Assembly: GCA_910574255.1 (NCBI GenBank) | Contig: CAJTAK010000005.1 | Coordinates: forward strand, 209,184 to 273,183 | Origin: Clostridia bacterium | GTDB lineage: Bacteria > Bacillota > Clostridia > Lachnospirales > Lachnospiraceae | DNA length: 64,000 nucleotides | Direction: 5' to 3' | Notes under the pieces: generated by a model | Seen by the model: only the letters and a program-made list of their open reading frames with translations | Told to the model about the DNA's origin: nothing | Database searches by the model: none | Shown here: in pieces, positions 42,660 through 64,000 of the stretch | How the letters are laid out: each line of letters begins with the position of its first letter | Numbering within the stretch: the stretch's first letter is position 1 | Program-made: the position numbers and the translations under genes

Positions 42660-43196
42660 GTGTCAAACACAGAGCCAAAGAACAACGTAGAGGCAAAGAA
42701 GAAGGGAGGGAAAATTGTTCTTATCATATGCATTTTGATTATCCTGGCCTTGATAGGCGTTGTGATCTATCTGTTGCTGAACAAGGATGGTGAAGAGCAG
42801 GGACGCCGCAATGTGGTAGTCAATGAGGACAATGTGGATAAGATCATTGAGCAGATGCAGGACAGCGAAAGAGTTGCTGACGGTTACTACGAGATGACCA
42901 TGAATTCCACTTGGTATTTTGAGAATGGTACCGCAGCGTCGGACAATGCATATGTAGAGAATACGGTGACGAATACCAACTCGGTGTACTTTGATATCGT
43001 GCGTTCTGATACGGGGGAGACAATCTTTGAATCACCCATTATTCCGGTGGGGAGTCATATGGAGGGAATCACTCTGGATAAGGACTTGGATGCCGGAACG
43101 TATGATTGCGTTCTTATTTATCATTTGTTGGATGAAGAAAATGAGAATGATATCAGTACAGTGCGGGTGAGTGTAACGATTGTTATTGAGAATTAA
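42660..43196 (+). CDS. Membrane-anchored extracellular protein of unknown function
   Basis: This 178-residue protein starts at GTG after AGGAGG. A lysine-rich cytoplasmic head (residues 1-17) precedes one membrane span (IVLIICILIILALIGVVIYL, about 19-38). An extracellular domain of about 135 residues ending in a beta-rich segment (VSVTIVIEN) follows. I do not recognise the domain. It directly precedes a secreted X2-domain protein and could be the membrane partner or anchor for it. Confidence 0.75.
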   Translation: MSNTEPKNNVEAKKKGGKIVLIICILIILALIGVVIYLLLNKDGEEQGRRNVVVNEDNVDKIIEQMQDSERVADGYYEMTMNSTWYFENGTAASDNAYVENTVTNTNSVYFDIVRSDTGETIFESPIIPVGSHMEGITLDKDLDAGTYDCVLIYHLLDEENENDISTVRVSVTIVIEN

Positions 43197-43230
43197 AGGA
43201 ATTGGATGTATTTTCAAGGAGGATATGATA

Positions 43231-48229: not shown

Positions 48230-48260
48230 AAAAAGGGGTACTTTAAAGTACCTCTTTTTT
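48230..48260 (+). terminator. Terminator after the six-module gene
   Basis: AAAAAGGGGTACTT and AAGTACCTCTTTTT pair with one mismatch and end in T6. It separates the secreted-protein genes from the glycan genes. Confidence 0.8.
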
Positions 48261-48300
48261 GCAGAATCAGTGTAGAACAGGGCGGAAGGAAAATAAAAAA

Positions 48301-49503
48301 TTGCGGATTGTTTTTTGGGGAACAGGGAATACGGCAAAGAAATATATAGATCGAATAAAAAGATTATCAGACCGATTTGAAGTTGTGGCATTTACTGATA
48401 GTTGTCAGAATGACAATAACACTTGTTTTTGCTGGGAAGGGTTTAAATTGATAGCCCCCAAAGCGATTTGTGAGCTTGATGTGGACCTCCTTTGTATTTT
48501 AAGTATTTGGGAATGGGAAATACGTAGGACAATTTATGAAGAAAGGGTGTTTGATTTATCGAGGATTATAAGCTTCCATGAGATTTGCATGATGGATTCT
48601 TTTGATATGGAATTGGATATTTGTTATGAAAAGGAATTGGAAAATATGCATCCGCAACAAAAAGAATCGGCAGAAATGTGGAGAGATTATGAATATCTTA
48701 AAAGAAAGTATTCCTATGTGTTGTGTGATAAGTGCTATTGGAAGATAGAAGCAAAGAGAAAGGCTTATTTTGAAAAAGATATAAGACCGATTTGGATTCT
48801 TTGGTTACAAGGAATGGATCGGGCTCCGGAATTGGTAGAAATCTGCATTCGATCTTTAAAAAGAGCATTGGGAGATAAAGAATTTATCTGTCTGTTAGAT
48901 GCAGAGAATGTATGGAATTATATTGATCTGCCTGACTATATAGTACAAAAATGGGAAAATGGAGTAATAAGCAATACCCATTTTTCAGATCTTATCAGAC
49001 TGCGCCTTTTAAATGTTTATGGCGGCATATGGATAGATGCAACCGTGTATTTTACAGGAAGCAAATTGCCGGATTATATGAAAAACAGCAAATTATTTAT
49101 GTTCAATATGCGGGAACATTGGAGTGTGTGTACAGAACCCAGGATAGCGGCAAACTGGCTGATATCTGCTCAGTCTGAAAATAAGATGCTGATTATTTTA
49201 GAAGCATTGTTGCATGAGTATTGGAAAAGAGAGAACAGAGCGATAAATTATTATTTTTTTCATATATTCTGGACAATGGTAGTGGAGTGTAGGCCAAAGG
49301 AATGGGAACAGGTGGAAAATGTTATAAGAGATCCGGCTCAACTATTAAATGGGAAATTAACCAAAGAATTTCAGGAAGATTCTTTCGAATATTTAAAACA
49401 GATGTCAGATATTCATAAGCTTTCTTATAAGGAGGCCTATATGGATGCTGGAAAAAACAGTTTTTGGGCTAAATTATGCGAGATAGACAGGAGGAACAGG
49501 TAA
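48301..49503 (+). CDS. Capsular polysaccharide synthesis glycosyltransferase with N-terminal Rossmann module
   Basis: About 400 residues from TTG 48301, which follows GGAAGGA. An upstream in-frame TTG lies inside the terminator and is unlikely. Residues 1-95 form a Rossmann-like module (RIVFWGTGNTAKKYIDRI, FTDSC). Residues about 160-400 match the capsule synthesis/GT32-like family: IWILWLQGMDRAPELVEIC and a DxD-type block RLLNVYGGIWIDATVYF near residue 241. It would transfer a sugar to the surface glycan of this second cluster. The stop overlaps the next ATG. Confidence 0.78.
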   Translation: MRIVFWGTGNTAKKYIDRIKRLSDRFEVVAFTDSCQNDNNTCFCWEGFKLIAPKAICELDVDLLCILSIWEWEIRRTIYEERVFDLSRIISFHEICMMDSFDMELDICYEKELENMHPQQKESAEMWRDYEYLKRKYSYVLCDKCYWKIEAKRKAYFEKDIRPIWILWLQGMDRAPELVEICIRSLKRALGDKEFICLLDAENVWNYIDLPDYIVQKWENGVISNTHFSDLIRLRLLNVYGGIWIDATVYFTGSKLPDYMKNSKLFMFNMREHWSVCTEPRIAANWLISAQSENKMLIILEALLHEYWKRENRAINYYFFHIFWTMVVECRPKEWEQVENVIRDPAQLLNGKLTKEFQEDSFEYLKQMSDIHKLSYKEAYMDAGKNSFWAKLCEIDRRNR

Positions 49504-50867
49504 TGGAGCATACGTTATTGATACACATAGGAATAAGCAAAACAGGGACAAGTGCGCTGCAGACTTTTTTGTACGAGAATATGGAAAAATTAGAGGAATA
49601 TGGATGGCGCTATCCGGATTTAAATAAGGAACTGTTTGGGCTTCAATTTCTTACATTTGGAAAAGAAATAAACGGAAGTGTTTTCTATAAGGAAAGAGAA
49701 AAACTGGATACCGAAGCAGAAAATTGGAATAAGGCGTGGGAACGAGTACTGGAGCATTTAAAAACTAAAAATGTAATAATATCGGATGAGAGAATATGTG
49801 TCTGGGATACAAACAAATTTCTTACTGCAGCGAAAGAGAAGTATGACAATATTAAGGTTATTATTTATTTAAGACGTCAGGATAGGGCAATTGAATCCTT
49901 TTGGAATCAGAGAGTAAAAAATCCGGTGGGATGCGGACAAATATTCCAGGAATTTATACATTTCGACGGCTGTGCAGAATGTGCCCCATATCATTATAAA
50001 AGACAGTTAGATGATATAAGTAATATTGTTGGTAAAGAAAATCTTATTGTAAGAGTATATGAAAAAGGACAGCTTTGTGGGGAAAAGCATAATACAGAGT
50101 CAGATTTTTTGTCGTCTATTGGAATAGAACCAGACTGGGAACAATGGAAAAGGTGTGTTCCTCAAAATCTTAGATTAGGTGAAAATTATCTTGAGATTAA
50201 AAGAATTTTTAATTCCATACTTGATGAGGGAGATGTGGAACAAGGAATATCATCTATGTTATGTTTTGAGAAATTATCGCAGAATTTTTGCTGTGAGGAA
50301 AAAGAAAAGGGATGTTTTACTATAGAAGAACGGGAAAAGTTTTTAAAACAGTTTGAAGCAGAAAATGAAGAAATTGCAAGGGAATATCTGCATAGAAATG
50401 ATGGGATTTTGTTCTATGATGACAGGAAGGATTACCCTTTATATGAATATTCTTATACTTCATTTGAGCAGGATATGATAAGAGTATTTTCTGCTTTGAT
50501 AAATAATCAGAGCAGAGAACTTCAGCGTTTGGAAAAGCACAACTCTTTTCTGGCAGAGAAGCTTATGCTGTTTAACAACTCAAATGGCAAGAGATTGCTA
50601 CTTTTTGGAGCAGGGCATAAATGCAGAAAACTTTTGGATGAATTGAGAACTCCTGTTACTTTAATTGTGGATAATGATGAAACAAAAAGCGGTAAAAGTT
50701 TACAAAAAGTTCCTATTGTTTTTACGGAACAAGTAAAGGATTGGTCTGACTATTTTATAATTGTAACTTGTGCAGAAACAGAGGAGATAGAACAACAATT
50801 GCAGGGGTTCGGATTAGAGAAAGAAAAAGACTATGTAGTTGCTAAGGATTACTTTATATATTATTGA
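49503..50867 (+). CDS. Sulfotransferase-family protein with C-terminal Rossmann module
   Basis: 454 residues. The PAPS 5'-phosphosulfate loop is LLIHIGISKTGTSALQTFL (residues 5-23). The 3'-phosphate block IIYLRRQDRAIESFWNQRV lies near 119-137. These match carbohydrate sulfotransferases. A C-terminal module starting LLLFGAGHKCRKLLDEL near residue 365 resembles the sugar-nucleotide-type Rossmann module seen in neighbouring genes. It would transfer sulfate from PAPS to a sugar hydroxyl; PAPS can be made by the cysD and cysNC products 8 kb downstream. It has no signal or membrane segment, so it acts in the cytoplasm. The acceptor is unknown. Confidence 0.75.
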   Translation: MEHTLLIHIGISKTGTSALQTFLYENMEKLEEYGWRYPDLNKELFGLQFLTFGKEINGSVFYKEREKLDTEAENWNKAWERVLEHLKTKNVIISDERICVWDTNKFLTAAKEKYDNIKVIIYLRRQDRAIESFWNQRVKNPVGCGQIFQEFIHFDGCAECAPYHYKRQLDDISNIVGKENLIVRVYEKGQLCGEKHNTESDFLSSIGIEPDWEQWKRCVPQNLRLGENYLEIKRIFNSILDEGDVEQGISSMLCFEKLSQNFCCEEKEKGCFTIEEREKFLKQFEAENEEIAREYLHRNDGILFYDDRKDYPLYEYSYTSFEQDMIRVFSALINNQSRELQRLEKHNSFLAEKLMLFNNSNGKRLLLFGAGHKCRKLLDELRTPVTLIVDNDETKSGKSLQKVPIVFTEQVKDWSDYFIIVTCAETEEIEQQLQGFGLEKEKDYVVAKDYFIYY

Positions 50868-50920
50868 TCGTAGTTTGTAAGTGACAGTATTTTTTAAACA
50901 GAGAGTTTAGAGGGAAAAAT

Positions 50921-52933
50921 ATGAAAAAGCTAATTATGGTTTTAGGAATGCATAGAAGTGGTACTTCAGTTGTAACCCAATTATGTCAATGCATGGGTGG
51001 TTATTTAGGTGAGGAAGATGAATTGATAACTGCAAGCAAAGATAATCCGGATGGTTATTTTGAGAATAAAGATATAACGTGTATAGATGATGAAATATTG
51101 CACTTGGCTGGACGGGAATGGTATAGTTTAGGAATGTTGGAGGCGGATTACGACTATACTCAGCTTGCAAAAGTAATGGCAGAGTTAAGGTCAAGTATTC
51201 AAAAGCTTCTAAAAAGAGGGAATATCGTTACGATTAAAGATCCGAGAACTGCTGTTCTGCTTCCTGTGTGGGAGAAAATTTTAGGTGAATTAGAGGTTGA
51301 GGTCCATTATATCTGGGTGTTTAGAAATCCATTGGAGGTGGCAGAGTCATTACGAAAAAGGGACGGATATAGTAGAGAGCATGGGGTATTGCTTTGGGCC
51401 TATTACAATCTTAGTATATTGAACTACCTTAAAAGAAAAGAGTATAAATTGGTTCACTATAGGGATCTATTAGAAAATGTGCAGATAATTGAGGAATTAA
51501 ATCAATTGTTTGGCAGTGAGACAGATGAAAGCTTAAAATATAAACAGGAACGTATTATAAAAAGAGGATATTGTCACTCGGAGTATTCAGTACAGGACGT
51601 ATGGGATATACAAGACAAACTGGTTTCAGATTTTTATTGCTCATTGTTAAAAAATGAAGGACTGGAACAAAAGATATTGGATTGGGAGAAACAGTATACA
51701 GAAAGAATTCCACAAGAAAAGGAAAGATATATTGATTATGATGTATTAGATAATAACAGTTCTTTGAAGGAAAAAGATATAGTTATCTATGGAGCGGGAA
51801 AATGTGGTAAGCAGGTTGCGGGAATGCTGCAGCAGATGGGATTCAGGTATGACTTTTGTGATAAAGATATTCATAAGCAAGGTACGCTTCTTATGGGGGG
51901 ACATGTTTTATCAATTGAAGATGTAAAAGAAAAAGAAAAACTTTGTTTTATTATTGCAATTGAAAAAGAAAGCTTGAAAAAAGAGATTGAGCAAACACTG
52001 TTATGTGTAAAAAAAGCAAGTTTTCTTTCATCTTTTGCAGTACAGCTCTTATCAAAATGTTTTATATGTGAAAATACTGTTTTGGAAACGAAAGCAGAGA
52101 TATTTTCTTCCGGATATAAAAGGATGGTGTCGCAGTGGGGGATGATTAAAGATGCTTGTAAATACCCTGTACTGGTTTACCAAGGTGGAAAAGTAGGTTC
52201 ATTGACAGTTTCACAAAGCTTATGGAAGGCTGGTGTAAAGAACACACATATACATGGATTCTTTTTTAAAAATGATATAGTTGCCGAATTACTACTTAAA
52301 GACTGGTATAGAGATTTTGTAAAAAGTTCAAGTATTTACCAATTTCATTCACCGGAATATGCAAAATATGTAAAGGATGAAATGAAAGGTAAAAAGATTA
52401 TCACAATGGTACGAGAACCTATAGCGGTTGACCTATCTAGAGTGTTCCAATGGATAGGGACAGGAATTGCGGATAGCTATCTGAGACAACAACTAAAACA
52501 AGGAAAGACCTTCTTGGAGATTGTTTATACACTTATGATGCGGATTCAGGATCGAGTTTTTATCTGGTTTGATGAAGAACTTAAGGAATTGTGCGGAGTT
52601 GATGTTTTTGCATATCCTTTTGATAAAGAAAAAGGATATGTGCGTATCAAAGAAAATGGTGTGGAAATATTGCTTATGAAGGCAGAAAAACTATCTCAAA
52701 TGACAGAGGTAATTCGCAAATTTACAGGTAATCAACAGTTGGAATTGAAGAACCAGAATGTGGGAAAGGACAAAGAGTACGCTCATATCTACGAAGAAGT
52801 AAAGAAGAAACTTGAAATTCCGAGAGAGTATGCAGAGCATTATTATAGAAATAATCCATATATGGATCATTTCTATACAGAAGAAGAGAAGAAAAACTTT
52901 TATAAAAAATGGATGAAAAACATAAAAGATTAA
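50921..52933 (+). CDS. Multidomain sulfotransferase-Rossmann-sulfotransferase-like protein
   Basis: 670 residues in three parts. Residues 1-265 form a sulfotransferase domain (MVLGMHRSGTSVVTQL at 6-21, VFRNPLEVAESLRKRDGYS near 133). Residues about 285-375 form a Rossmann module (DIVIYGAGKCGKQVAGMLQQ). Residues about 410-660 form a second PAPS-type domain of the putative capsular polysaccharide synthesis group (VLVYQGGKVGSLTVSQSLW, then IITMVREPIAVDLSRVF). Two transferase units in one chain suggest sulfation at two positions, or one catalytic and one structural unit. The gene ends inside a 45-codon ORF. Confidence 0.75.
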   Translation: MKKLIMVLGMHRSGTSVVTQLCQCMGGYLGEEDELITASKDNPDGYFENKDITCIDDEILHLAGREWYSLGMLEADYDYTQLAKVMAELRSSIQKLLKRGNIVTIKDPRTAVLLPVWEKILGELEVEVHYIWVFRNPLEVAESLRKRDGYSREHGVLLWAYYNLSILNYLKRKEYKLVHYRDLLENVQIIEELNQLFGSETDESLKYKQERIIKRGYCHSEYSVQDVWDIQDKLVSDFYCSLLKNEGLEQKILDWEKQYTERIPQEKERYIDYDVLDNNSSLKEKDIVIYGAGKCGKQVAGMLQQMGFRYDFCDKDIHKQGTLLMGGHVLSIEDVKEKEKLCFIIAIEKESLKKEIEQTLLCVKKASFLSSFAVQLLSKCFICENTVLETKAEIFSSGYKRMVSQWGMIKDACKYPVLVYQGGKVGSLTVSQSLWKAGVKNTHIHGFFFKNDIVAELLLKDWYRDFVKSSSIYQFHSPEYAKYVKDEMKGKKIITMVREPIAVDLSRVFQWIGTGIADSYLRQQLKQGKTFLEIVYTLMMRIQDRVFIWFDEELKELCGVDVFAYPFDKEKGYVRIKENGVEILLMKAEKLSQMTEVIRKFTGNQQLELKNQNVGKDKEYAHIYEEVKKKLEIPREYAEHYYRNNPYMDHFYTEEEKKNFYKKWMKNIKD

Positions 52934-53046
52934 GAATTATTAAACAAATTAGTCAATGCATAGAAAAGTGGGAACGTGAAGAGTATGATTTGGTATTGGG
53001 AAAAGGATACTCATTGGATAAAAGAAAATTGGAGAGAGCACTATGA
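52909..53046 (+). CDS. Small 45-residue ORF overlapping both neighbours
   Basis: The frame opens at ATG 52909, 22 bases before the end of the previous gene, and stops at TGA 53044, overlapping the next ATG as ATGA. The product is highly charged (MDEKHKRLRIIKQISQCIEK at the start, ending LDKRKLERAL) and predicted helical. Double overlap in an operon of tightly coupled genes argues that it is translated. Function unknown; it could also be a remnant. Confidence 0.5.
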   Translation: MDEKHKRLRIIKQISQCIEKWEREEYDLVLGKGYSLDKRKLERAL

Positions 53047-53525
53047 GATGTAAAGGCTTAAGGCTGCTGTGCGGGAGTGTGCTGAGCGGTGTGGCAGTGG
53101 GATATCTGATAAATGCTTATTGGGCAAAGAGGCAGAAAGTTTTACAACAACAGGAAGAAAAGCTCCAAGACCATTACTGGCTGTTAAATCATTGGTTAGA
53201 GTTTAAAAATGAGGGAAAAACGGCGGCTTCCTATTTTGAGGATATGGGCTATCATCATATAGCTATTTATGGAATGTCCGATTTGGCTAACCGTCTTATG
53301 GAGGACTTGGAGGGAAGCTCCATTCAGATTGATTATGGAATTGATCGCGATATCTGCTGTTCGAGCGCAAGAATATCAGATATTTATTTTCCGGAGGATG
53401 AGCTTCCAAAGGCAGATGCTATTGTAGTTACACCATATTCGGCAATGGAATCTATCAGTGCGATGCTTAAGAGTAAAGTAGACTGCCCGGTTATTTCCTT
53501 GGAAGAGGTTGTATGGAGTGTATAA
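53043..53525 (+). CDS. Membrane-anchored Rossmann-module protein
   Basis: 160 residues. An N-terminal membrane segment (LLCGSVLSGVAVGYLINAYW, about 8-27) and a short coiled region (KRQKVLQQQEEKLQDHY) lead to a Rossmann-like domain with IAIYGMSDLANRLMEDL near residue 73, and VVTPYSAMESI. There is no catalytic domain attached. The same module is fused to transferases in the surrounding genes, so this may be a membrane scaffold or regulatory subunit. It overlaps the small ORF upstream by four bases. Confidence 0.7.
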   Translation: MRCKGLRLLCGSVLSGVAVGYLINAYWAKRQKVLQQQEEKLQDHYWLLNHWLEFKNEGKTAASYFEDMGYHHIAIYGMSDLANRLMEDLEGSSIQIDYGIDRDICCSSARISDIYFPEDELPKADAIVVTPYSAMESISAMLKSKVDCPVISLEEVVWSV

Positions 53526-53527
53526 AA

Positions 53528-54604
53528 ATGAAAATGATTGCAATGTACTTACCACAGTTTCATGAAATTCCTGAAAATAATGATGCCTGGGGAAAAGGAT
53601 TTACGGAGTGGGTAAATGTGAAAAAAGCAAAGCCCTTATTTTTCGGACATAATCAGCCGCGGATTCCTTTGCATAATCATTATTATAATCTTTTGGATAA
53701 GGGCGTGTTGGAAGGACAGACTGCGTTGGCAAAGCGGGCAGGTATCTATGGATTTTGCTTTTATCATTATTGGTTTCATGGCAGGATGGTCTTGGAAAAG
53801 CCGGTTCAGATGCTTTTGGATAACAATAAGATAGATTTTCATTATTGTTTTTCCTGGGCTAATGAGCCTTGGACAAAAACCTGGCATGGCGCAGGAGGTA
53901 ATAAGGAGATTTTGATTCCGCAGACCTATGGAAAAGAGGATGAATGGCAGGAGCATTATAATTATTTCAGGCCTTTTTTTATGGATGAACGGTATATTAA
54001 GGAGGGAAACTGTCCGGTTCTGTTGATTTACCGTCTGCGGAATATACCCCATTTTAATGATATGATTCGCTTTTGGAATGAATGTGCCCGTGGGGATGGA
54101 TTTTCCGGAATATTTGTGGTTTCTATGAATAAAAGCCGGGAACATGTGGCAATGAGCCGTTTGGTAAATGCGTCAGTGGATTTTGAACCCAATAGAACAA
54201 AATCAGATTTACTTGAAACACCGTCCTGCCTGCCTGTAAAGGCAGAAGGGAGTCTCTGGTGGAATTGGTTTGCCATGAAACGTATTGATTATAAGCTCTT
54301 AAATGAAAAGATGCTTCATACTACACATGAAAAAAATCATTTTCGCATGGTATTTGCAGACTTTGATGATTCTCCTCGGAGAAATACAAGGGCCGTGGTT
54401 ATGAAGGGGAGTACGCCCAAGCGGTTTGGAAGATATTTGAGGAGAACCTTGCAACTGAGCCGGCAGGAGGGAAATGATTATGTGTTTTTAAATGCATGGA
54501 ATGAATGGGGAGAGGGAAACTACCTGGAGCCGGACGTAAGGCATGGCTATAAATATTTGAAGGAGATAAAAGCCGCCTTAGAATACCAGGGAAAGGAAAT
54601 TTGA
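53528..54604 (+). CDS. WbsX-family glycan synthesis protein (GH99-like fold)
   Basis: This 358-residue protein matches the WbsX family (PF14307): MIAMYLPQFHEIPENNDAWG at the start, GFTEWVNVKKAKPLF, GFCFYHYWFHGRMVLEKP near residue 76, FSWANEPWTKTW, and FLNAWNEWGEGNYLEPD near residue 322. These proteins occur in O-antigen and capsule loci and are proposed to be glycosyltransferases or glycosidases with a GH99-like barrel. The ATG at 53528 follows GGAGTG; a longer start overlaps the previous gene. Confidence 0.83.
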   Translation: MKMIAMYLPQFHEIPENNDAWGKGFTEWVNVKKAKPLFFGHNQPRIPLHNHYYNLLDKGVLEGQTALAKRAGIYGFCFYHYWFHGRMVLEKPVQMLLDNNKIDFHYCFSWANEPWTKTWHGAGGNKEILIPQTYGKEDEWQEHYNYFRPFFMDERYIKEGNCPVLLIYRLRNIPHFNDMIRFWNECARGDGFSGIFVVSMNKSREHVAMSRLVNASVDFEPNRTKSDLLETPSCLPVKAEGSLWWNWFAMKRIDYKLLNEKMLHTTHEKNHFRMVFADFDDSPRRNTRAVVMKGSTPKRFGRYLRRTLQLSRQEGNDYVFLNAWNEWGEGNYLEPDVRHGYKYLKEIKAALEYQGKEI

Positions 54605-54609
54605 GAACT

Positions 54610-55827
54610 ATGGATAATAAAAATCCTTTAGTTAGTATTGTTGTACCTGTATATAATGTATCTCTCTATATAGAAAAGTGTATCAAAAGTATACAGGAAC
54701 AAAGTTATGAAAACTTGGATATTATCCTTATAGATGATGGTTCCACAGATGGAACATCAGAAATTTGCGATAAAATCGCTGAAAATGATATGAGAATAAA
54801 AGTAGTTCATCAAAAGAATTCCGGAGTTGTCAGGGCAAGGAAGAGGGGCGTAGAGTTAGCAAAAGGAAAATATATTTCTTTTGTTGACGGAGATGATTGG
54901 ATTGAACCGGATATGATCAAGTTTATGCTGAATAATATCAGAGAAGCGGAGATTCTTTCCCTGGGAGTTTATGAGGAAGTTGCACCGGATAATATTGCGG
55001 TAAGATATGACGAATTTCCGGAAGGACTGTATATAGGTGAATCACAAATTGCTGAAATATTAAGGAATATGATTTATGATTTTGCCCAAGACCGTTTGCA
55101 GAGATTGACGCCTTGGGGATGGAATAAACTTTTTTTGAGTGTTCTGATTAAAAAAATTTATCAGGAAATAGATCCTGAGATTACGATTGCAGAAGATACG
55201 GTGTTCGTCTATAAATGTTTATTAAGGTGCAAATCGATAGTTATCAGCCATAATTGCTTCTATCATTACCAATATCGGGAAGAATCTGCCGTACATACGG
55301 CGAATCCTCATATGTTGATTAGCATTAATAAAATTTATCTTGCACTGTATACTGAATTTAACAAGCATCCAATGAGTGAATCCCTGCTTCTTCAACTGCA
55401 GAAGTGGGTTTTGCTGATGGATTATTGGGCTGTTAATATTTATTCGGGCTTTGATAAACGAATCTATATTCCGGAATTTGTTGCGAATCTTTCCGGTTTA
55501 GAAAATAAAAAGATAATATTATATGGGGCGGGAAAAGTAGGAAAGACGGCATATGAACAACTTAAAAAATTTGGTTATAATATTGTGTCATGGGTAGATA
55601 AAAATTTTAAATATTATCAGAATATAAATTTGCCGGTTACAACACCTCATAGATTAGCAGATAAAGACTTTGATTTGATTTACATCGCTGTCAGTGATCA
55701 GGAAGTAGCAGAGAAAATAAAAATGGAGTTATTGGCAAAAGGAATTCCGTACAATAAGTTAATATGGAAAGAACCTATGAAGATTTTTGATTATAGCGAA
55801 TGCCGAAGAATGAAAGGGTTAAGCTGA
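54610..55827 (+). CDS. Glycosyltransferase family 2 with C-terminal Rossmann module
   Basis: About 405 residues. The N-terminal GT2 domain opens LVSIVVPVYNVSLYIEKCI, with LIDDGSTDGTSEICDKIA near residue 42 and the DGDDW metal-binding motif near 95. From about residue 302 a Rossmann module follows (IILYGAGKVGKTAYEQLKKF, WVDKNF, DLIYIAVSD). The ATG at 54610 is preferred over an in-frame TTG at 54601. It would add a sugar from a nucleotide donor on the cytoplasmic face. Confidence 0.85.
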   Translation: MDNKNPLVSIVVPVYNVSLYIEKCIKSIQEQSYENLDIILIDDGSTDGTSEICDKIAENDMRIKVVHQKNSGVVRARKRGVELAKGKYISFVDGDDWIEPDMIKFMLNNIREAEILSLGVYEEVAPDNIAVRYDEFPEGLYIGESQIAEILRNMIYDFAQDRLQRLTPWGWNKLFLSVLIKKIYQEIDPEITIAEDTVFVYKCLLRCKSIVISHNCFYHYQYREESAVHTANPHMLISINKIYLALYTEFNKHPMSESLLLQLQKWVLLMDYWAVNIYSGFDKRIYIPEFVANLSGLENKKIILYGAGKVGKTAYEQLKKFGYNIVSWVDKNFKYYQNINLPVTTPHRLADKDFDLIYIAVSDQEVAEKIKMELLAKGIPYNKLIWKEPMKIFDYSECRRMKGLS

Positions 55828-55828
55828 A

Positions 55829-57262
55829 ATGAGGATATTATTGTATAACTGGATACCATTTGATGACAAGAATGGACGAGGCGGAGGAGTAACGGTATAT
55901 TTAAAGAATTTAATTGATGAAATGGTGAAAGAATATAGCTCCAACATAGAGGTGTTTTTTTTATCTTCCGGTTGTTATTATGATATATATAATGAAGAAA
56001 CGAGAGTTGAAGAAACATCAAATGTTTACGGGAAAAAATGCAGGACTTTTTCAATTATCAATTCTCCCGTATTTTCGCCGGGCTATCTGTCATTTTATTA
56101 TTTGGACAAGGTATTATATGACGAAACATTGAAAGATGTATTTTACAAATTTTTAAATGAATATGGACCCTTTGATGCTGTACATTTTCATAATTTAGAA
56201 GGTGTGTCAATTCAGCTTTTGGCATGCAAAAAAGATTATCCGAAAATAAAGTTTATCTATACGCTGCATAATTATTACCCGTTCTGCCCCCAGATTAATT
56301 TATGGAAGGAAGAGCGACGTAACTGTAATATTCAGGATACGGGTGAGATCTGTATGAAATGTATGGATCAGCATGTACCGGCGGAAAAGCTCAGACGTAA
56401 GATGGCAATGACCTACAACCTTGTAAAAAATCCGTCGGAGAACTTAGCCAAAGCATATAAATATTGCGGAAGTCAATTGGACAGCTATTTTGAAAAATTT
56501 GAAAAGAGTGATTTGTCAGAAGAGGATTATAAACGTGTAGTGGATGCGCTAAAACAATTTAGACAATATTTTGTAGAGATGATTAATACAAATATAGATC
56601 TTGTGTTAGCTGTTTCGGAAAGAGTCCGTGAAATTGCCATAAGAATGGGAATTCAAAAAGAACGATTGACTGTTTCCTATATAGGAACTAAAGCGGCTGA
56701 TTTTGCATTAAACCATGCAAATTGCACCTGTTTAAAAAAGGAACCTTTTTCTTTAATATATATGGGATATCAACGCATAGATAAGGGGTATTATTTTTTG
56801 GCGGAGGTTTTAAATAATATGCCGGAAGCTATAGCAAAAAAAATAGATGTTACGCTTTTGGCAAAGAAATATCCTAATTCGAAATATAAAGATACACAGA
56901 TAAATGAAGACAAATTTCATTCATTTATTGCAAAGGATGGTTATTTAAAAGATGAAATGCAGTCGTTATTAATGAATAAGCATTTGGGAATTATCCCGGT
57001 TTTATGGGAAGATAATTTGCCACAAGTAGCTATTGAGATGACAGCTTATGGTGTACCGATACTAACATCTGATTTAGGAGGCGCTTCGGAGCTATGCGGC
57101 GATAAGGCATTTGTTTTCCATGCAGGTGATGTTAATGATTGTATCAATAAAATTATCAATTTTGTTTCCCATCCGGAAATATTGGAAAAGTATTGGGAGA
57201 ACTATAAAGGGCTTAAAACAATGAAGGAACATTTAAAAGAACTAATAGAGCATTGGAGCTGA
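55829..57262 (+). CDS. Glycosyltransferase family 4
   Basis: This 477-residue GT-B enzyme has GRGGGVTVYLKNLIDEM near residue 12, FIYTLHNYYPFCPQINLW near residue 140, and the donor site LPQVAIEMTAYGVPILTSDL near residue 396. A Cys-containing insertion (CNIQDTGEICMKCMDQH near 168) could bind a metal, a feature of some long GT4 proteins. The gene starts one base after the preceding stop. Confidence 0.85.
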   Translation: MRILLYNWIPFDDKNGRGGGVTVYLKNLIDEMVKEYSSNIEVFFLSSGCYYDIYNEETRVEETSNVYGKKCRTFSIINSPVFSPGYLSFYYLDKVLYDETLKDVFYKFLNEYGPFDAVHFHNLEGVSIQLLACKKDYPKIKFIYTLHNYYPFCPQINLWKEERRNCNIQDTGEICMKCMDQHVPAEKLRRKMAMTYNLVKNPSENLAKAYKYCGSQLDSYFEKFEKSDLSEEDYKRVVDALKQFRQYFVEMINTNIDLVLAVSERVREIAIRMGIQKERLTVSYIGTKAADFALNHANCTCLKKEPFSLIYMGYQRIDKGYYFLAEVLNNMPEAIAKKIDVTLLAKKYPNSKYKDTQINEDKFHSFIAKDGYLKDEMQSLLMNKHLGIIPVLWEDNLPQVAIEMTAYGVPILTSDLGGASELCGDKAFVFHAGDVNDCINKIINFVSHPEILEKYWENYKGLKTMKEHLKELIEHWS

Positions 57263-57328
57263 ATCACAAATCAAGGCATGTAGGAAAGACTATTAGAAAG
57301 ATTGTATGGCATGGTGCAGGGCAAATAA

Positions 57329-58252
57329 ATGAAAATAAATCAGGGACAATATGAATCTATAATAATATATGGGATCGGGCAGTATTTTGAAAGTATTAAA
57401 GAAGACTTATTTCAATATGTAGAGCCTGACTATTTGTGCGACAGAAAATGGGATGATGATGTACCAAGTAGTTATCATGGCATACCAATTATAAAGAGAA
57501 AAGAACTGCCTCATTTAAAAAACAGCTTAATAATTATAACAACAGGTTCCCCCTGGATAACGGCTTCTATAAAAAATGAATTAAAGCTGGAGGAAGCATC
57601 TGTAATACATGCAAATGAAGTTCTTGGAAGACCTAAAAGTATAACAGGTAAGGAATTGAAAGAAGCTTCCCATAAGGGGTATTATCAGGATATATGGGAA
57701 AATCGCATCTACTTTAACGAGACAGTCCCAAATTCAATTATAATAAATTTTTTAGGGAAAAATAATACGCTGGAGATAGGTACTAATGTGACGGTAAATA
57801 ATCTGAAAATTTCCTTTGGAAATGGCGGAAGGTGCAGTATTGGGGAAAGAACAGAGGTGATGGGAGCAAATTTTGCGGTATCAGGAGCAAGTTTGAAGAT
57901 TGGAAGAGACTGTTTGCTTTCCTTTGGAGTATTTATACGAAATCATGATTCACATCATATTTTTGATGTTCATACACATGAAAGAATTAATTATCCTAAA
58001 GATATTGTAATTGATGATCATGTATGGATCGGACAAAATGCGATTATCCTGCCAGGCGCTGGAATAGGCAGGAATTCCATTGTAGGAGCCGGAACGGTTA
58101 CTTCCGGCCAGTTTGGCGAAAATCTAATTATTGCAGGGTGTCCGGCAAGAGTGATTCGCAAACAGGTATGTTGGAGCAGAGAGGATACGGCTTATTTTAG
58201 TTATGATACATTGGAAGAGTGTGCATCTCAGGAGGCGCTTAAATATCTATGA
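57329..58252 (+). CDS. Hexapeptide acyltransferase with N-terminal Rossmann module (PglD-like layout)
   Basis: 307 residues. Residues 1-100 are a Rossmann-like module (SIIIYGIGQYFESIKEDL). Residues about 145-285 form a left-handed beta-helix with LEIGTNVTVNNLKIS, IGRDCLLSFGVFIRNHDSHH, and VWIGQNAIILPGAGIGRNSI, and an end CPARVIRKQ. This is the order found in PglD-type sugar acetyltransferases. It would O- or N-acetylate a sugar of the second glycan. It is the last gene of the glycan block. Confidence 0.82.
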   Translation: MKINQGQYESIIIYGIGQYFESIKEDLFQYVEPDYLCDRKWDDDVPSSYHGIPIIKRKELPHLKNSLIIITTGSPWITASIKNELKLEEASVIHANEVLGRPKSITGKELKEASHKGYYQDIWENRIYFNETVPNSIIINFLGKNNTLEIGTNVTVNNLKISFGNGGRCSIGERTEVMGANFAVSGASLKIGRDCLLSFGVFIRNHDSHHIFDVHTHERINYPKDIVIDDHVWIGQNAIILPGAGIGRNSIVGAGTVTSGQFGENLIIAGCPARVIRKQVCWSREDTAYFSYDTLEECASQEALKYL

Positions 58253-58268
58253 AAGATAACAACTGAAT

Positions 58269-58282
58269 AAAGGCTTTACACC
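58269..58282 (+). repeat. Inverted repeat flanking a small gene, left copy
   Basis: AAAGGCTTTACACC is the exact reverse complement of 58568-58581. A third partial copy (GGCTTTACAC) is at 58597-58606. The small gene at 58352 lies between them. Confidence 0.6.
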
Positions 58283-58351
58283 TTTCAAGCGATCCATTAT
58301 AATATCAAGTAACAATACATTATAATAGAGTAACGAGAAGGTGATGAAGAT

Positions 58352-58534
58352 ATGACAGAAAAAGAAATGATAAAGGTATCTATAGAAGAGTTTTCCAGGC
58401 TTCAAAGTTATATGCTTGCAACTGAGAAAGATTCGAATGGTTACAAACTCATGAAAGAGCGTTACATTGAGTTAAAAGTAATTTTAACTTCTTTTGGCAT
58501 CAATCTAACAGAGATAGACAGGATCAAAGAATAG
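58352..58534 (+). CDS. Small 60-residue protein of unknown function
   Basis: The protein reads MTEKEMIKVSIEEFSRLQSY at its start and is predicted to be all helical and charged. GAGAAGGTGATGAAG supplies a ribosome site. It is flanked by inverted repeats and ends before a terminator, so it seems to be an independent unit between the glycan block and cysD. TATAAT-like sequences at about 58300 and 58320 could be its promoter. I do not recognise it. Confidence 0.6.
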   Translation: MTEKEMIKVSIEEFSRLQSYMLATEKDSNGYKLMKERYIELKVILTSFGINLTEIDRIKE

Positions 58535-58568
58535 CTCTGCAAACAAATCAAACAGCATGAAAGCATGG

Positions 58569-58611
58569 TGTAAAGCCTTTGTTGGATTATTAAGGGGCTT
58601 TACACTTTTTG
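58569..58611 (+). terminator. Terminator between the small gene and cysD
   Basis: GTGTAAAGCC (58569-58578) and GGCTTTACAC (58597-58606) pair perfectly and are followed by TTTTTGATTTTTT. The 5' arm overlaps the right copy of the flanking inverted repeat. Confidence 0.8.
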
Positions 58612-58632
58612 ATTTTTTAAAGGAGAATCCAT

Positions 58633-59547
58633 ATGACAGAAAGAAAAACAAACACCCACTTAGACGCCCTTGAGGCAGAAGCCATTTACATCATAAGAGA
58701 AGTAGCGGCGGAGTGCGAAAAGCCGGTAATGCTCTACTCCATTGGAAAGGACAGCTCGGTGATGCTTCACCTGGCACTGAAAGCATTCTATCCCGAGAAG
58801 CCCCCTTTCCCCTTTCTTCACATTGACACTACATGGAAGTTCAAGGATATGATCGCTTTCCGTGACCGGATTGCAAAGGAAAAAGGCATCGAAATGTTGG
58901 TTTACACCAACGAGGAGGGCGTACGCCAGGGCATCAATCCCTTTGATCACGGCTCTGCCTACACAGACATCATGAAAACTCAGGCATTAAAGCAGGCCCT
59001 TACCAAATACGGTTTTACGGCAGCCTTCGGCGGCGGCCGCCGGGATGAGGAGAAGTCCAGAGCTAAGGAGAGAATATTCTCCTTCCGCAACAGTGAACAG
59101 GCATGGGACCCCAAGAATCAGCGGCCGGAGATGTGGAAGCAGTATAACACGCAGCTTCACAAGGGCGAGAGCATCCGGGTATTTCCCATTTCCAACTGGA
59201 CAGAGAAGGATATCTGGCAGTACATTGAGAGGGAAAAGATAGAGATTGTGCCCCTGTACTTTGCAAAAGAACGCCCGGTGGTGTATCGGGACGGCAATAT
59301 TATCATGGTGGATGACGACAGGATGCGGATGCGCCTTCTTCCGGAAGAGCAGATAGAACAAAAAAGTGTCCGCTTCCGGACCCTGGGCTGCTATCCTCTG
59401 ACCGGCGGCGTGGAATCTACGGCAGACACCCTGGAAGAGATTGTAAAGGAAACCCTTGGAGCAGTGACCTCCGAGCGGACAAGCCGGGTGATTGATCATG
59501 AGGCGGCAGGAAGTATGGAAAGACGTAAGCGGGAGGGATATTTCTAA
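58633..59547 (+). CDS. cysD: Sulfate adenylyltransferase subunit 2
   Basis: This 304-residue PP-loop enzyme of the CysD type opens with [19 protein letters not shown]. It has [20 protein letters not shown] near residue 33 and [16 protein letters not shown] near 61. [17 protein letters not shown] (near 137) and [12 protein letters not shown] follow. With CysN it forms APS from ATP and sulfate. AAAGGAG precedes the ATG. It starts right after the terminator at 58569-58611 and is followed at once by the cysN-cysC fusion. No cysH or sulfite reductase gene is near. Confidence 0.95.
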
Positions 59548-59548
59548 T

Positions 59549-61375: not shown

Positions 61376-61396
61376 TATTATTCATGGCTATTTTAA

Positions 61397-61434
61397 ATCT
61401 CCACGCCAATTACTTTGCTGATTGGCGTGGAGAT
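61397..61434. terminator. Hairpin between convergent cysNC and LacI genes
   Basis: Perfect 14-base arms ATCTCCACGCCAAT and ATTGGCGTGGAGAT surround a 10-base loop. AT-rich DNA lies on the left side, so it probably terminates at least the leftward LacI transcript and perhaps both. Confidence 0.65.
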
Positions 61435-61450
61435 CGCAGAGTAATACGGC

Positions 61451-62440
61451 TTATATATGGAAACAACTGTCTCTTTCCATGATGTGACACGGGAATTCCA
61501 CACGCAGCTTTTCCGCATGTCCGTGCAGAATCCGATCATGCAGTATCTGTACGGCCATATGAGCCATAGTCTCTCTGGGGATATGAACGGTTGTAAGCAG
61601 CGGCTTCGTCATCTGGGCTTCATCCGTGTCATCAATAGCAATGACTGAGATTTTCCTGTTTCGCTGCTTCTTATGGACGTGCAGTGCTTCCAAGGCTCCC
61701 ACGGCAGTGATATCATTTGCGCATAAGACAGCGGTTAGCTCCGTATCTTCAAGGAGCCGTTCCATAGCCTGAAACCCTTCTTCCTTTGACTGATCCGTAG
61801 GGATAATGCAGGAGTAATCAATGGGGAGATGATGGTTGATCATGGTCTCACAGTATCCTATATAACGGCTCTCATAAGAGCAGTCTCCGATATATCCGAT
61901 TTTTCGATGACCCTTTTGGATTAGATAGGTGACGGCGGCTTGGGCGGCTTTTTGACCATCGCATACGATTTCATCGATTTCAAAATTCATCGGATTTCTC
62001 CAGATTCCAACTAAATTTTGCGTAAGATTTGAAAGGGTGTGTATTATTTTTGAGGAACATCGCCCAAGAATGACGGCGCCGTCACAGGTAAGAGATTTTT
62101 GGCGGACAACATCGTTCTGGGTAATGATGCATTCGGTAGTGAATCCTTTCTTAAATGTTTCAATCTCAAGATTGCGGTAAAGATCTCTGAAAAAGGGGTC
62201 CTGTTCCAAGGTTTTTACTCTTGCCAGAACAATTAGTATATGCAGCTTTTTTTCCTGGCCAGACTGGCCGGACTTCAGGTTTCGGGCGGAAACATTTGGC
62301 ACGTAATTAATTTCGTGAGCCGCTTTCCAGATTTTTGCTTTCAATTCCTCCGATGCACAGGTGGCATAATTATTGTTTAAAACTCTTGAAACGGTGGAGG
62401 TGGAAGTGCCGGCCATTTCGGCAATCTTTTTTAAGGACAT
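61451..62440 (-). CDS. LacI family regulator, likely of the sulfate transport operon
   Basis: 329 residues. The N-terminal helix-turn-helix is LKKIAEMAGTSTSTVSRVLN (residues 3-22), followed by the hinge YVPNVSARNLKSG. The effector domain contains VCDGQKAAQAAVTYLIQKGH, IGYIGDCSYESRYIGY, and CANDITAVGALEAL. A perfect palindrome CACAAACGTTTGTG lies 19 bases before its start, and a 12-bp copy lies upstream of the sulfate-binding protein gene, so it likely controls both. LacI proteins normally sense sugars, which makes control of sulfate uptake unusual. Confidence 0.88.
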   Translation of the reverse strand: MSLKKIAEMAGTSTSTVSRVLNNNYATCASEELKAKIWKAAHEINYVPNVSARNLKSGQSGQEKKLHILIVLARVKTLEQDPFFRDLYRNLEIETFKKGFTTECIITQNDVVRQKSLTCDGAVILGRCSSKIIHTLSNLTQNLVGIWRNPMNFEIDEIVCDGQKAAQAAVTYLIQKGHRKIGYIGDCSYESRYIGYCETMINHHLPIDYSCIIPTDQSKEEGFQAMERLLEDTELTAVLCANDITAVGALEALHVHKKQRNRKISVIAIDDTDEAQMTKPLLTTVHIPRETMAHMAVQILHDRILHGHAEKLRVEFPCHIMERDSCFHI

Positions 62441-62458
62441 GATTTACTCCTTTGTTTA

Positions 62459-62472
62459 CACAAACGTTTGTG
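62459..62472. promoter_or_regulatory. LacI-type operator at the regulator's own gene
   Basis: CACAAACGTTTGTG is a perfect 14-bp palindrome just upstream of the minus-strand LacI start, suggesting autoregulation. Confidence 0.75.
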
Positions 62473-62564
62473 AAATGAGAGGTTGAAAGGGAGCGGATTT
62501 TGTGCTAACATCTTTATGTGAAATATATTATATCTTATTTTTAAGGATTTTCAATAGCTTTATT

Positions 62565-62660
62565 CCTGCGGGCAACGAGCCAAGCGGACATGCTAGCATG
62601 TCCATTTGGCGACTGCCGCAAGGGTCAAATACCCCGCAGCTTGCTGCGGGGTATTTGACT
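62565..62660. repeat. Palindromic intergenic repeat (REP/BIME-like)
   Basis: The stretch contains a large imperfect hairpin centred on the perfect palindrome GGACATGCTAGCATGTCC (62587-62604), with flanking pairs GCCAA/TTGGC and TGCGG/CCGCA. A second perfect hairpin ACCCCGCAGC-TT-GCTGCGGGGT (62631-62652) follows. The GC-rich block sits in AT-rich intergenic DNA between two operators, consistent with a dispersed repeat. It may also insulate the two divergent genes. Confidence 0.6.
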
Positions 62661-62663
62661 TAG

Positions 62664-62675
62664 ACAAACGTTTGT
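62664..62675. promoter_or_regulatory. LacI-type operator of the sulfate transport genes
   Basis: ACAAACGTTTGT matches the core of the palindrome at 62459-62472 and lies 63 bases before the start of the sulfate-binding protein gene. A possible promoter (TTTGTG, 17 bases, CAATAT) begins within the operator. Confidence 0.7.
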
Positions 62676-62738
62676 GTAAATTGAAAATATCTGCAATATA
62701 TTTCAGAAAGATTTGTTATAGCGAGGAGTGATTGAAGC

Positions 62739-63779
62739 ATGAAAGAAAGAACTATGAAAAAAAGGACCACAGCAGGGGCGCTGATTATAGCAATGGTGTT
62801 TTTGGCCCTGTTGGCCGGATGCGGGAAGAGCTCCAAGACGGGTGACAACAAGGGCATGGAGCTTTTGAATGTTTCTTATGATCCCACCAGAGAATTTTAT
62901 GCAAAGTATAATGAACTGTTTTCGGAATATTGGAAAGATAAGACGGGCGAGGAGATAACGGTAACGCAGTCTCATGGCGGCTCCGGCTCCCAGGCACGTT
63001 CCGTAATTGAGGGAAATGAGGCGGATGTGGTGACCCTGGCCCTGGCCCATGACGTTACGGCTATTGAAGAGGCTGGGCTTATTGAAAAGGGCTGGATTGA
63101 AGAGTTTGACGGCAACAGTGCGCCCTATACATCCACCATTGTATTTCTGGTTCGGAAAGGGAATGAAAAGGGGATTCAGGATTGGGACGATCTGGTGAAG
63201 GACGGCGTTGAGGTAATCACCCCCAATCCCAAAACATCAGGCGGTGCCTGCTGGAATTTCCTTGCGGCCTGGGCTTATGAGCAGAAGCAGAACGGCGGGG
63301 ACGAGGAAGCTGCCAAAGCCTTTTTGAAGAAATTGTATGAAAATGTACTGGTTCTGGATTCCGGCGCCAGAGGAGCCACCAATACCTTTGTGGAAAACGG
63401 GCAGGGGGATGTGCTGATTGCATGGGAAAATGAGGCATACCTCTCTATGGAGCAGTATCCGGGAGAGTATGAGATTGTAGCGCCCAGCATCAGTATTCTG
63501 GCGGAGCCGTCCGTGGCGGTGGTAGACAGCAATGCAAAGGATCATGGGACAGAGGAACTTTCTAAAGCTTATCTGGAATATCTGTATAGCGCTGATGCCC
63601 AGCGACTGGCAGGGGAGAATTATTACCGGCCCTCCGATCAAGAGATTCTTAAGGAGTTTTCTGACCAGTTTAATCTTGATATGGATTTGGTTACTATTGA
63701 TGATTTTGGCGGATGGAATGCGGCATATGATACATATTTTAACGATGGTGCGGTGTTTGACCAGATTTATGGAAGTTAG
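62739..63779 (+). CDS. sbp: Sulfate ABC transporter substrate-binding lipoprotein
   Basis: 346 residues. An N-terminal signal peptide ends in the lipobox LLAGC with Cys28. The mature part has the sulfate-binding signature VTQSHGGSGSQARSVIEG near residue 75, ADVVTLALAHDVTAIE, and ITPNPKTSGGACWNFLAAWA near residue 164, typical of CysP/Sbp. It would capture sulfate (or thiosulfate) outside the membrane. GAGGAGTG precedes the ATG. The permease gene follows after 18 bases. Confidence 0.93.
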   Translation: MKERTMKKRTTAGALIIAMVFLALLAGCGKSSKTGDNKGMELLNVSYDPTREFYAKYNELFSEYWKDKTGEEITVTQSHGGSGSQARSVIEGNEADVVTLALAHDVTAIEEAGLIEKGWIEEFDGNSAPYTSTIVFLVRKGNEKGIQDWDDLVKDGVEVITPNPKTSGGACWNFLAAWAYEQKQNGGDEEAAKAFLKKLYENVLVLDSGARGATNTFVENGQGDVLIAWENEAYLSMEQYPGEYEIVAPSISILAEPSVAVVDSNAKDHGTEELSKAYLEYLYSADAQRLAGENYYRPSDQEILKEFSDQFNLDMDLVTIDDFGGWNAAYDTYFNDGAVFDQIYGS

Positions 63780-63797
63780 GAAAGGGCCCGTTGCTTT

Positions 63798-64000
63798 ATG
63801 GAACAGCAGATTGTAAAAGTAAAGAATAAAAAGGGAGTTCGAGTGATTCCGGGCTTTGGACTTTCTTTGGGAGTGACACTTACCATGCTGAGCTGTCTGG
63901 TGCTGATCCCTTTGGCATCCATTTTTTTAAGTGCCGGTCAGCTTGGATTTCGGGAGTTCCTTGCGGTGGTTACTGCCCGCCAGATTGTCTCCGGTTATAT
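63798..64000 (+). CDS. cysT: Sulfate ABC transporter permease CysT, 5' part only
   Basis: About 67 residues are visible before the window ends. A charged head (MEQQIVKVKNKKGVRVIPGF) is followed by a membrane span (LSLGVTLTMLSCLVLIPLASIFL) and AGQLGFREFLAVVTARQIVSGY, the N-terminal pattern of CysT/CysU. It should be followed by cysW and cysA outside the window. Confidence 0.85.
   Translation, partial: MEQQIVKVKNKKGVRVIPGFGLSLGVTLTMLSCLVLIPLASIFLSAGQLGFREFLAVVTARQIVSGY

What the first reader, a model, noticed from the sequence alone, without database searches (positions are those of the whole stretch)
49503..64000. Complete candidate route for a sulfated surface glycan in a Firmicute
Seen: two proteins with three PAPS-type sulfotransferase modules lie in a glycan gene block. 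They are followed by cysD, a cysN-cysC fusion that makes PAPS, a dedicated regulator, and a sulfate ABC transporter. No cysH or sulfite reductase is near, which argues against simple sulfur assimilation. Known: NodQ/CysNC-type enzymes supply PAPS to sulfotransferases in rhizobia. Inferred: uptake, activation and transfer of sulfate form one pathway here. Sulfated polymers are rarely reported from Gram-positive gut bacteria and would mimic host mucin sulfation.
Basis: partly seen in the sequence, partly recalled or inferred. Interest (0 to 1): 0.8.

Follow-up and report, generated by a model that had tools for sequence, protein, structure and literature searches.

The report
Sulfated surface glycan gene cluster
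One stretch of a bacterial chromosome, likely from the gut family Lachnospiraceae, carries close together the genes predicted to import sulfate, activate it as PAPS, transfer it to sugars that likely end up on the cell surface and clear the by-product, and no gene was found for turning that sulfate into cysteine, so such bacteria may coat themselves with sulfated sugars much as animal cells do.

Summary
ST1 (49503) and ST2 (50921) carry three sulfotransferase-type modules: two have a predicted sulfotransferase fold with conserved PAPS-binding residues; the third (NKWYS) rests on motif and gene context. They lie in a glycosyltransferase block followed by cysD, cysN-C, a LacI-type regulator and a sulfate ABC transporter, which continues past the window and ends in cysQ, the PAP phosphatase. 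No APS/PAPS reductase or sulfatase was found genome-wide; two sulfite-reductase-family genes exist elsewhere. Among 80 family genomes a transferase occurs in 22 of 29 with CysN-C against 2 of 51 without (20 against 2 if NKWYS is left out), and both exceptions have a separate APS kinase near the transferase. Two relatives hold surface protein, transferase, glycosyltransferase, cysD, cysNC, cysQ and sulfate transporter in one same-strand run. Best reading: a dedicated PAPS-sulfation pathway for a surface glycan, possibly carried by the surface proteins at 42660-48212. Activity, substrate and carrier are untested. New variant of a known kind: sulfated-polysaccharide loci are known mainly from Gram-negatives and cyanobacteria.

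The parts
42660..43196 (+). membrane-anchored protein, 178 aa (anchor by eye); candidate part of the glycan-carrying surface layer (role inferred)
   Evidence: homologs in the same fetched stretch as CysDNC in L039, L045, L046, L050, L094 and in G111
43180..44340 (+). secreted surface protein, 386 aa (signal peptide by eye); candidate acceptor
   Evidence: homologs in L039, L046, L050, L125, L126, L127
45564..48212 (+). secreted repeat surface protein, 882 aa (signal peptide by eye); candidate acceptor
   Evidence: Pfam only Shr-like_HID 28.2 bits
48259..49503 (+). capsular-polysaccharide-type glycosyltransferase (Caps_synth)
   Evidence: PF05704 221.7 bits; 51% identical gene between the ST2-like and ST1 genes in L039
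49503..50867 (+). ST1: sulfotransferase domain (about 1-308) + helical linker + Rossmann domain (about 362-454)
50921..52933 (+). ST2: N-terminal sulfotransferase (1-244), PglD-like Rossmann (284-379), C-terminal NKWYS module (about 414-670)
53043..53525 (+). small protein of the block, 160 aa, membrane-anchored by eye
   Evidence: homologs in L039 and L048 among 6 loci, L126
53513..54604 (+). WbsX-type glycosyltransferase
   Evidence: PF14307 402 bits
54601..55827 (+). GT2 glycosyltransferase with C-terminal Rossmann module
   Evidence: PF00535 119 bits; Rossmann
55829..57262 (+). GT4-type glycosyltransferase
   Evidence: PF13439 / PF13692
57329..58252 (+). hexapeptide O-acetyltransferase-like protein with N-terminal Rossmann module
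   Evidence: PF00132; 34% identical relative directly after cysA in L125
58633..59547 (+). CysD, ATP sulfurylase small subunit
   Evidence: NF009214 514 bits
59492..61375 (+). CysN-CysC fusion, ATP sulfurylase GTPase subunit + APS kinase (makes PAPS)
   Evidence: NF004035 863 bits; GTPase and APS kinase motifs present
61451..62440 (-). LacI-type regulator, divergent from sbp
   Evidence: 45-51% identical genes beside sbp in L052, L053, L070, L073
62739..63779 (+). sulfate-binding protein (Sbp) of the ABC transporter
   Evidence: NF008022 452 bits
63798..64000 (+). start of cysT; cysT, cysW, cysA and cysQ run on outside the window to 67478 in window numbering
   Evidence: TIGR02139, TIGR02140, TIGR01331 over cut-off; CysA TIGR00968 just under

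Best explanation
The locus encodes what is predicted to be a self-contained pathway that imports sulfate, activates it to PAPS and transfers it to a glycan that is likely displayed on the cell surface. Steps: (1) Sbp-CysTWA would import sulfate, likely under control of the adjacent LacI-type regulator (inferred from family and position). (2) CysD/CysN would make APS and the fused CysC PAPS (family over cut-off, motifs present; activity inferred). (3) ST1 and the modules of ST2 would transfer the sulfo group to sugars assembled by the block's glycosyltransferases (two modules sulfotransferase-like by predicted fold and motif; NKWYS inferred; substrate inferred). (4) CysQ would hydrolyse the PAP left over (family over cut-off). 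(5) The glycan is likely carried by the surface-protein set at the head of the block (42660-48212): the least certain step, inferred from conserved synteny. The PAPS is likely not for cysteine, because no APS/PAPS reductase was found in the genome.
Against: No biochemical data. 7 of 29 CysNC+ genomes have none of the three transferase types, and 46 of 80 named CysNC stretches show no PAPS-type transferase by HMM, motif or cluster (29 of the 49 stretches negative by HMM and motif are cut within 8 kb of CysNC). Among 25 ST1-like proteins near CysNC in these stretches 16 keep the strict 5' motif, 8 read KTATT and one is a fragment. Glycosyltransferases are not generally enriched beside transferase-bearing loci: GT2 in 6 of 100 sampled neighbours against 7 of 100 in the other loci; compact CysD-CysNC-ST1 loci without matches to the window's glycosyltransferases exist (L075, L076, L077, L079). 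The surface-protein family also occurs without CysNC (G013, G153). ST1 and NKWYS matched no sulfotransferase significantly by sequence. The block has no recognised flippase or polymerase of its own. TIGR00434 found no over-cut-off CysH in any of the 80 genomes, also not in 20 with CysN but no CysC, so it may miss this family's reductases.
Confidence: 0.72

Rival explanations
1. The sulfate genes serve sulfur assimilation: sulfate is reduced to sulfide for cysteine, and the sulfotransferases are bystanders.
For: cysD, cysN and a sulfate ABC transporter are classic assimilation genes; the genome has two PF01077 sulfite-reductase-family proteins, one beside a gene that looks AsrB-like by eye. The CysH model found nothing over cut-off in any of 80 family genomes, so its silence here is weak evidence.
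Against: The broader PF01507 finds only CysD genome-wide; AprA gives only a 46-residue 24.8-bit match (cut-off 641.75) in a flavoprotein; APS kinase and CysQ would be superfluous without PAPS use; sulfotransferases track CysNC.
Confidence: 0.06
2. PAPS is used to sulfate small molecules (host steroids, phenols, lipids or a natural product), not a surface glycan.
For: A gut Bacteroides PAPS-ST cluster for steroids is known (recalled; the paper was not held); some CysNC loci are compact CysD-CysNC-ST1 sets without matches to the window's glycosyltransferases.
Against: In the window and in L039, L048 and L125 the transferases are interleaved with glycosyltransferases, and in the window, L039 and L125 with surface proteins; ST1's nearest solved folds include glycan sulfotransferases, though fold does not fix substrate.
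Confidence: 0.13
3. Same pathway but another carrier: the Wzy-type exopolysaccharide encoded at 746-25736, or flagellin, is what gets sulfated.
For: A polysaccharide cluster with a Wzy_C-type polymerase (14199) and a pyruvyl transferase (18681) lies upstream on the same strand; the genome has two flagellins about 50 kb downstream of cysQ, with glycosyltransferase-like genes (by eye) and another surface-protein homolog beside them; in L046 two flagellin genes lie upstream of CysDNC and an NKWYS gene.
Against: The three transferase families have no further member over threshold in the own genome, so none sits in the flagellin island or the upstream cluster; flagellin was found by motif in 2 of 80 named CysNC stretches, whereas the membrane/surface proteins recur in L039, L045, L046, L050, L094 and L125 and within 10 kb of NKWYS in 4 of 5 genomes. 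Neither point excludes action at a distance.
Confidence: 0.3

Closest known systems
Sulfated capsular polysaccharide locus of Vibrio sp. KMM 8419 (PMC11641403, passages read)
   Same: cysD, cysN and cysC plus sulfotransferases and glycosyltransferases inside a polysaccharide cluster; the authors call PAPS genes plus sulfotransferases in such a cluster a hallmark of sulfated polysaccharide synthesis; the polymer's structure was studied by NMR
   Different: Gram-negative marine bacterium, second copies of separate cysC, cysN and cysD, ABC exporter; here a CysN-C fusion with its own sulfate transporter, CysQ and LacI-type regulator
Other reported sulfated bacterial polymers: Cobetia marina KMM 1449 capsule (PMC11766843), Pontiella exopolymers (PMC7356697); search listings only
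   Same: bacterial sulfated polysaccharides with genomic sulfation genes
   Different: marine bacteria, not Bacillota
Synechan locus of Synechocystis (PMC8205485, abstract start in search listing only)
   Same: dedicated bacterial sulfated exopolysaccharide genes
   Different: cyanobacterium; its abstract calls sulfated extracellular polysaccharides unique to cyanobacteria among bacteria
wps-1 cluster of Actinoplanes missouriensis (PMC13390465, passages read)
   Same: Gram-positive; two predicted sulfotransferases in a polysaccharide cluster; a sulfate adenylyltransferase/APS kinase-family gene (AMIS_7390) is also needed for normal sporangia; sulfation itself unverified
   Different: actinomycete, Wzx/Wzy cluster; the passages read do not describe a sulfate transporter or CysQ with it
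Rhizobial NodPQ/NodH (recalled)
   Same: NodQ is a CysNC-type fusion feeding a sulfotransferase
   Different: modifies a lipo-chitooligosaccharide signal, not a surface glycan block
Heparan sulfate N- and 3-O-sulfotransferases (NDST1, 3-OST)
   Same: closest solved folds to ST1, tied with an Alicyclobacillus sulfotransferase
   Different: 10-14% identity over the aligned part; substrate specificity not transferable

Membership tests
PAPS-dependent sulfotransferase (ST1, ST2 N-terminus) | P-loop-like 5'-PSB motif with basic residue | tested here: met
   ST1 K13 76 of 76 ungapped; ST2 R12 46 of 49 ungapped
PAPS-dependent sulfotransferase (ST1, ST2 N-terminus) | 3'-PB Arg and Ser eight residues apart | tested here: met
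   ST1 R124/S132, ST2 R135/S143 conserved; the spacing rule itself is recalled
PAPS-dependent sulfotransferase (ST1, ST2 N-terminus) | sulfotransferase fold | tested here: met
   predicted models
PAPS-dependent sulfotransferase (ST1, ST2 N-terminus) | PAPS-dependent activity | not testable with these tools
   needs assay
PAPS-dependent sulfotransferase (NKWYS module of ST2) | motif pair and fold | tested here: inconclusive
   motif pair present (K424 43 of 44, R498 42 of 42, S506 38 of 42 ungapped); profile comparisons not significant; fold search rows did not cover the module
CysNC bifunctional PAPS synthase | over NF004035 cut-off with both sets of nucleotide-binding motifs | tested here: met
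CysQ PAP phosphatase | TIGR01331 over cut-off | tested here: met
   256.8 vs 228.8 bits; under the stricter NF008182 cut-off (212.7 vs 379)
Sulfate ABC transporter | Sbp, CysT, CysW over family cut-offs | tested here: met
   Sbp, CysT TIGR02139 and CysW TIGR02140
Sulfate ABC transporter | CysA ATPase over TIGR00968 cut-off | tested here: inconclusive
   339.8 vs 342.75 bits, best-ranked family
Assimilatory sulfate reduction operon | APS or PAPS reductase | tested here: not met
   limits: TIGR00434 is over cut-off in none of 80 family genomes, and the AprA model in 0 of 14 control genomes
Sulfated-polysaccharide biosynthesis cluster | PAPS genes and sulfotransferases within a polysaccharide gene cluster | tested here: met
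   hallmark as stated in PMC11641403
Sulfated-polysaccharide biosynthesis cluster | export or polymerisation genes in the same block | tested here: not met
   none recognised by Pfam among the eight proteins 48259-58252; a Wzy_C protein lies at 14199
Sulfated-polysaccharide biosynthesis cluster | sulfate ester in the polymer | not testable with these tools
   needs chemistry

The most novel reading that the evidence does not exclude
Gut Lachnospiraceae build sulfated glycoproteins on their surface with a self-contained operon, from sulfate import to PAP removal, and the NKWYS family, annotated only as putative capsular polysaccharide synthesis protein, is an unrecognised family of glycan sulfotransferases; it would be the first such system established in the Bacillota.
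Probability: 0.35. Interest if true: 0.82.

Novelty: new variant of a known kind. Interest (0 to 1): 0.66.

Why it matters
Sulfated glycans are a language of animal cells, and the gut is lined with sulfated mucins that many microbes eat. A Gram-positive commensal family that makes its own sulfated surface sugars would be a new player in adhesion, phage and immune recognition and in gut sulfate budgets. The compact gene signature (CysN-C fusion with ST1, NKWYS or another sulfotransferase, often with CysQ and a dedicated sulfate ABC) makes it directly searchable, and named contigs with the parts give starting points for experiments. It would also give a function to the NKWYS family and to the ST1 family, which the Pfam scan here did not recognise as sulfotransferases, and new bacterial enzymes for making sulfated sugars.

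Tried and rejected
Rejected: sulfur assimilation as the purpose. Rejected: the idea that CysNC loci in general lie in glycan blocks; the Pfam tallies of neighbours show no general glycosyltransferase enrichment (100 of 110 and 100 of 175 eligible neighbours sampled; the second group still held L042, L052 and L053, which one search shows to have a Sulfotransfer_1-type gene), so the glycan claim rests on this window and its close analogues.

Led nowhere or stayed weak: sequence search of ST1 and ST2 against PDB found no sulfotransferase; the NKWYS profile reached 3-OST chains only at E 0.44, behind unrelated chains; hhalign of NKWYS against sulfotransferase profiles gave probabilities of 0.3-21 against 0.1-1.8 for controls, and ST1 against them 15-61, over 19-25 columns. 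Rfam found nothing at 42000-64000. Literature: searches with gut, Firmicutes, Clostridia or Lachnospiraceae terms showed no report of a sulfated surface glycan in the family in the rows listed (open-licence PMC only; some searches listed 20 of 32, 20 of 216 and 15 of 33); NKWYS is in no paper held. In counting ST1, A1 matches that cover only the C-terminal Rossmann part were not counted (CysNC-: G002, G008, G013, G031, G037, G042, G153; CysNC+: G022, G028, G082, G111, G184); the E < 1e-20 limit was set after seeing the list. The 31 CysNC-negative genomes were taken in order of handle at completeness of 90 or more, not at random. One distance printed (G195, 1876) used the wrong end of the gene; searches give 65 bases.
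Full report
Setting. The window is G000:C5:209184-273183 of a 5.04 Mb, 78-contig genome (96.16% complete, 5.14% contamination). I therefore call it Lachnospiraceae-like; this is an inference.

Check of the observation. The genes are as described. ST1 (454 aa) has no credible Pfam hit; ST2 (670 aa) shows a below-cut-off Sulfotransfer_3 match at the N-terminus, a below-cut-off PglD_N-like Rossmann match and an over-cut-off NKWYS domain. CysD, CysN-C and Sbp are over their curated cut-offs. Beyond the window, on the same strand, come CysT and CysW (over cut-off), CysA (just under) and CysQ (TIGR01331, 256.8 vs 228.8 bits). CysQ matters: sulfotransferases leave PAP, and a PAP phosphatase at the end of the run is what a PAPS-consuming pathway needs (established biochemistry).

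Not assimilation. PF01507 gives one match in the whole genome, the window's CysD; TIGR00434 gives the same place at 24.5 bits. TIGR02061 (AprA) gives one 46-residue match at 24.8 bits against a cut-off of 641.75, in a flavoprotein next to an iron-sulfur-type protein. Two PF01077 proteins exist, one beside a gene that looks AsrB-like by eye, so sulfite can perhaps be reduced, but no route from APS or PAPS to sulfite was found. No PF00884 sulfatase was found (the model was over cut-off in 9 of 14 controls). Limits: about 4% of the genome may be missing; TIGR00434 is over cut-off in 0 of 80 family genomes, including 20 with CysN but no CysC, so it may miss this family's reductases. Longer frames with a weak TIGR00434 match (40-56 bits over most of the model, 561-811 aa) occur in eight of the 80 genomes but not in this one.

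Co-occurrence. CysNC over the NF004035 cut-off is in 29 of 299 family genomes, nearly one genome per genus. In 80 of these (29 CysNC+, 20 CysN without C, 31 with neither) I searched ST1, Sulfotransfer_3 and NKWYS. At least one is present in 22 of 29 CysNC+ and 2 of 51 CysNC- genomes (Fisher 1.2e-11); leaving out NKWYS, 20 of 29 and 2 of 51. Both exceptions, G171 and G091, have a separate APS kinase within 2 kb of the transferase (coordinates). Sixteen of the 22 have the transferase within 4 kb of CysNC (25 to 3439 bases). Among the 80 named CysNC stretches 34 contain a PAPS-type transferase (21 ST1-like, 7 more ST2/NKWYS-like, 6 Sulfotransfer_1-type by cluster), 77 CysD, 23 CysQ and 20 Sbp (own locus left out); 46 show none, and 12 of these have a gene of an arylsulfotransferase cluster instead.

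One run of genes. L039 (Lachnospiraceae bacterium B50_50_CF_H) holds, on one strand, a membrane protein, a surface protein, an ST2-like protein without NKWYS, a Caps_synth transferase, ST1 (60% identical), an unknown gene, CysD (89%), CysNC (80%), CysQ (69%), Sbp (73%), CysT, CysW and CysA (77-82%) and further on WbsX. L125 (genome G111) holds membrane protein, surface protein, an unknown gene, NKWYS, UDP-galactopyranose mutase, GT2, CysD, CysNC, CysQ, Sbp, CysTWA and an acetyltransferase like 57329, again on one strand; here NKWYS is the only transferase candidate I found. L128 has CysQ-NKWYS-CysD-CysNC. The LacI-type regulator has 45-51% identical relatives beside sbp in L052, L053, L070 and L073, which supports a dedicated role.

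Which acceptor? The genes 42660, 43180 and 45564 encode a membrane protein and two secreted proteins (by eye). Relatives of the first lie in the same stretch as CysDNC in L039, L045, L046, L050, L094 and L125, of the others in L039, L046, L050 and L125, and the membrane-protein family is within 10 kb of NKWYS in 4 of 5 NKWYS genomes. But the family also occurs without CysNC (G013, G153). The own genome has two flagellins about 50 kb past cysQ, with glycosyltransferase-like genes and a further surface-protein homolog beside them, and L046 has flagellins upstream of its sulfation genes. The upstream polysaccharide cluster (746-25736) has a Wzy_C polymerase. So the surface-protein carrier is my first choice but not secure.

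Known or new. Vibrio sp. KMM 8419 has an NMR-studied sulfated capsule with cysDNC and sulfotransferases in the cluster, called a hallmark by its authors (PMC11641403, passages); Cobetia and Pontiella reports were seen in a listing. [quoted passage not shown] Searches for the family showed nothing comparable in the rows listed. The kind is therefore known; the host lineage, the self-contained layout with uptake, regulator and CysQ, the two-transferase ST2 architecture and the NKWYS link are new variants.

Noticed in passing
48259-58252: A similar Rossmann (PglD/NeuD-like) module is attached to five of the block's eight proteins (48259 N-term, weak, second round only; 49503 C-term; 50921 middle; 54601 C-term; 57329 N-term), as if the transferases shared a docking or regulatory module.
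   Followed up: partly
58265-58620: Between the glycan block and cysD lies a stretch with an inverted repeat (AAAGGCTTTACACC at 58269 plus strand and 58567 minus strand), a further partial copy, a promoter-like site at 58275, a short ORF and a terminator-like hairpin right before the cysD ribosome site; either a small mobile element or an attenuator. The fold as a whole is not unusual (z -1.51).
   Followed up: partly
L071:6665-8659 and 11 other CysNC loci: A BLAST cluster in 12 of 80 named loci, whose representative is an arylsulfotransferase (ASST, PF05935), recurs near CysNC; ASST are described as PAPS-independent.
   Followed up: no
L104:6198-7664 and 9 other loci: Chromate_transp family genes recur beside CysNC (cluster in 10 loci; 8 of 100 sampled neighbours); they may replace the sulfate ABC transporter.
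   Followed up: no
own genome C5:337337-338308: A further surface protein related to 43180 and 45564 sits close to the flagellin genes and their glycosyltransferase-like neighbours.
   Followed up: partly
746-1417: NusG-domain protein heading a polysaccharide cluster (PF02357), reminiscent of LoaP-type antiterminators (recalled).
   Followed up: no
27451-29037: Protein with what looks by eye like a SIR2-type domain plus TPR repeats, possibly a defence gene; not tested.
   Followed up: no
L072, L074, L083, L093: CysDNC loci of Bacilli (Gracilibacillus, Oceanobacillus, Calidifontibacillus) with a more distant CysQ-like gene some 3.7-3.9 kb from the CysNC start; purpose of PAPS there unknown.
   Followed up: no
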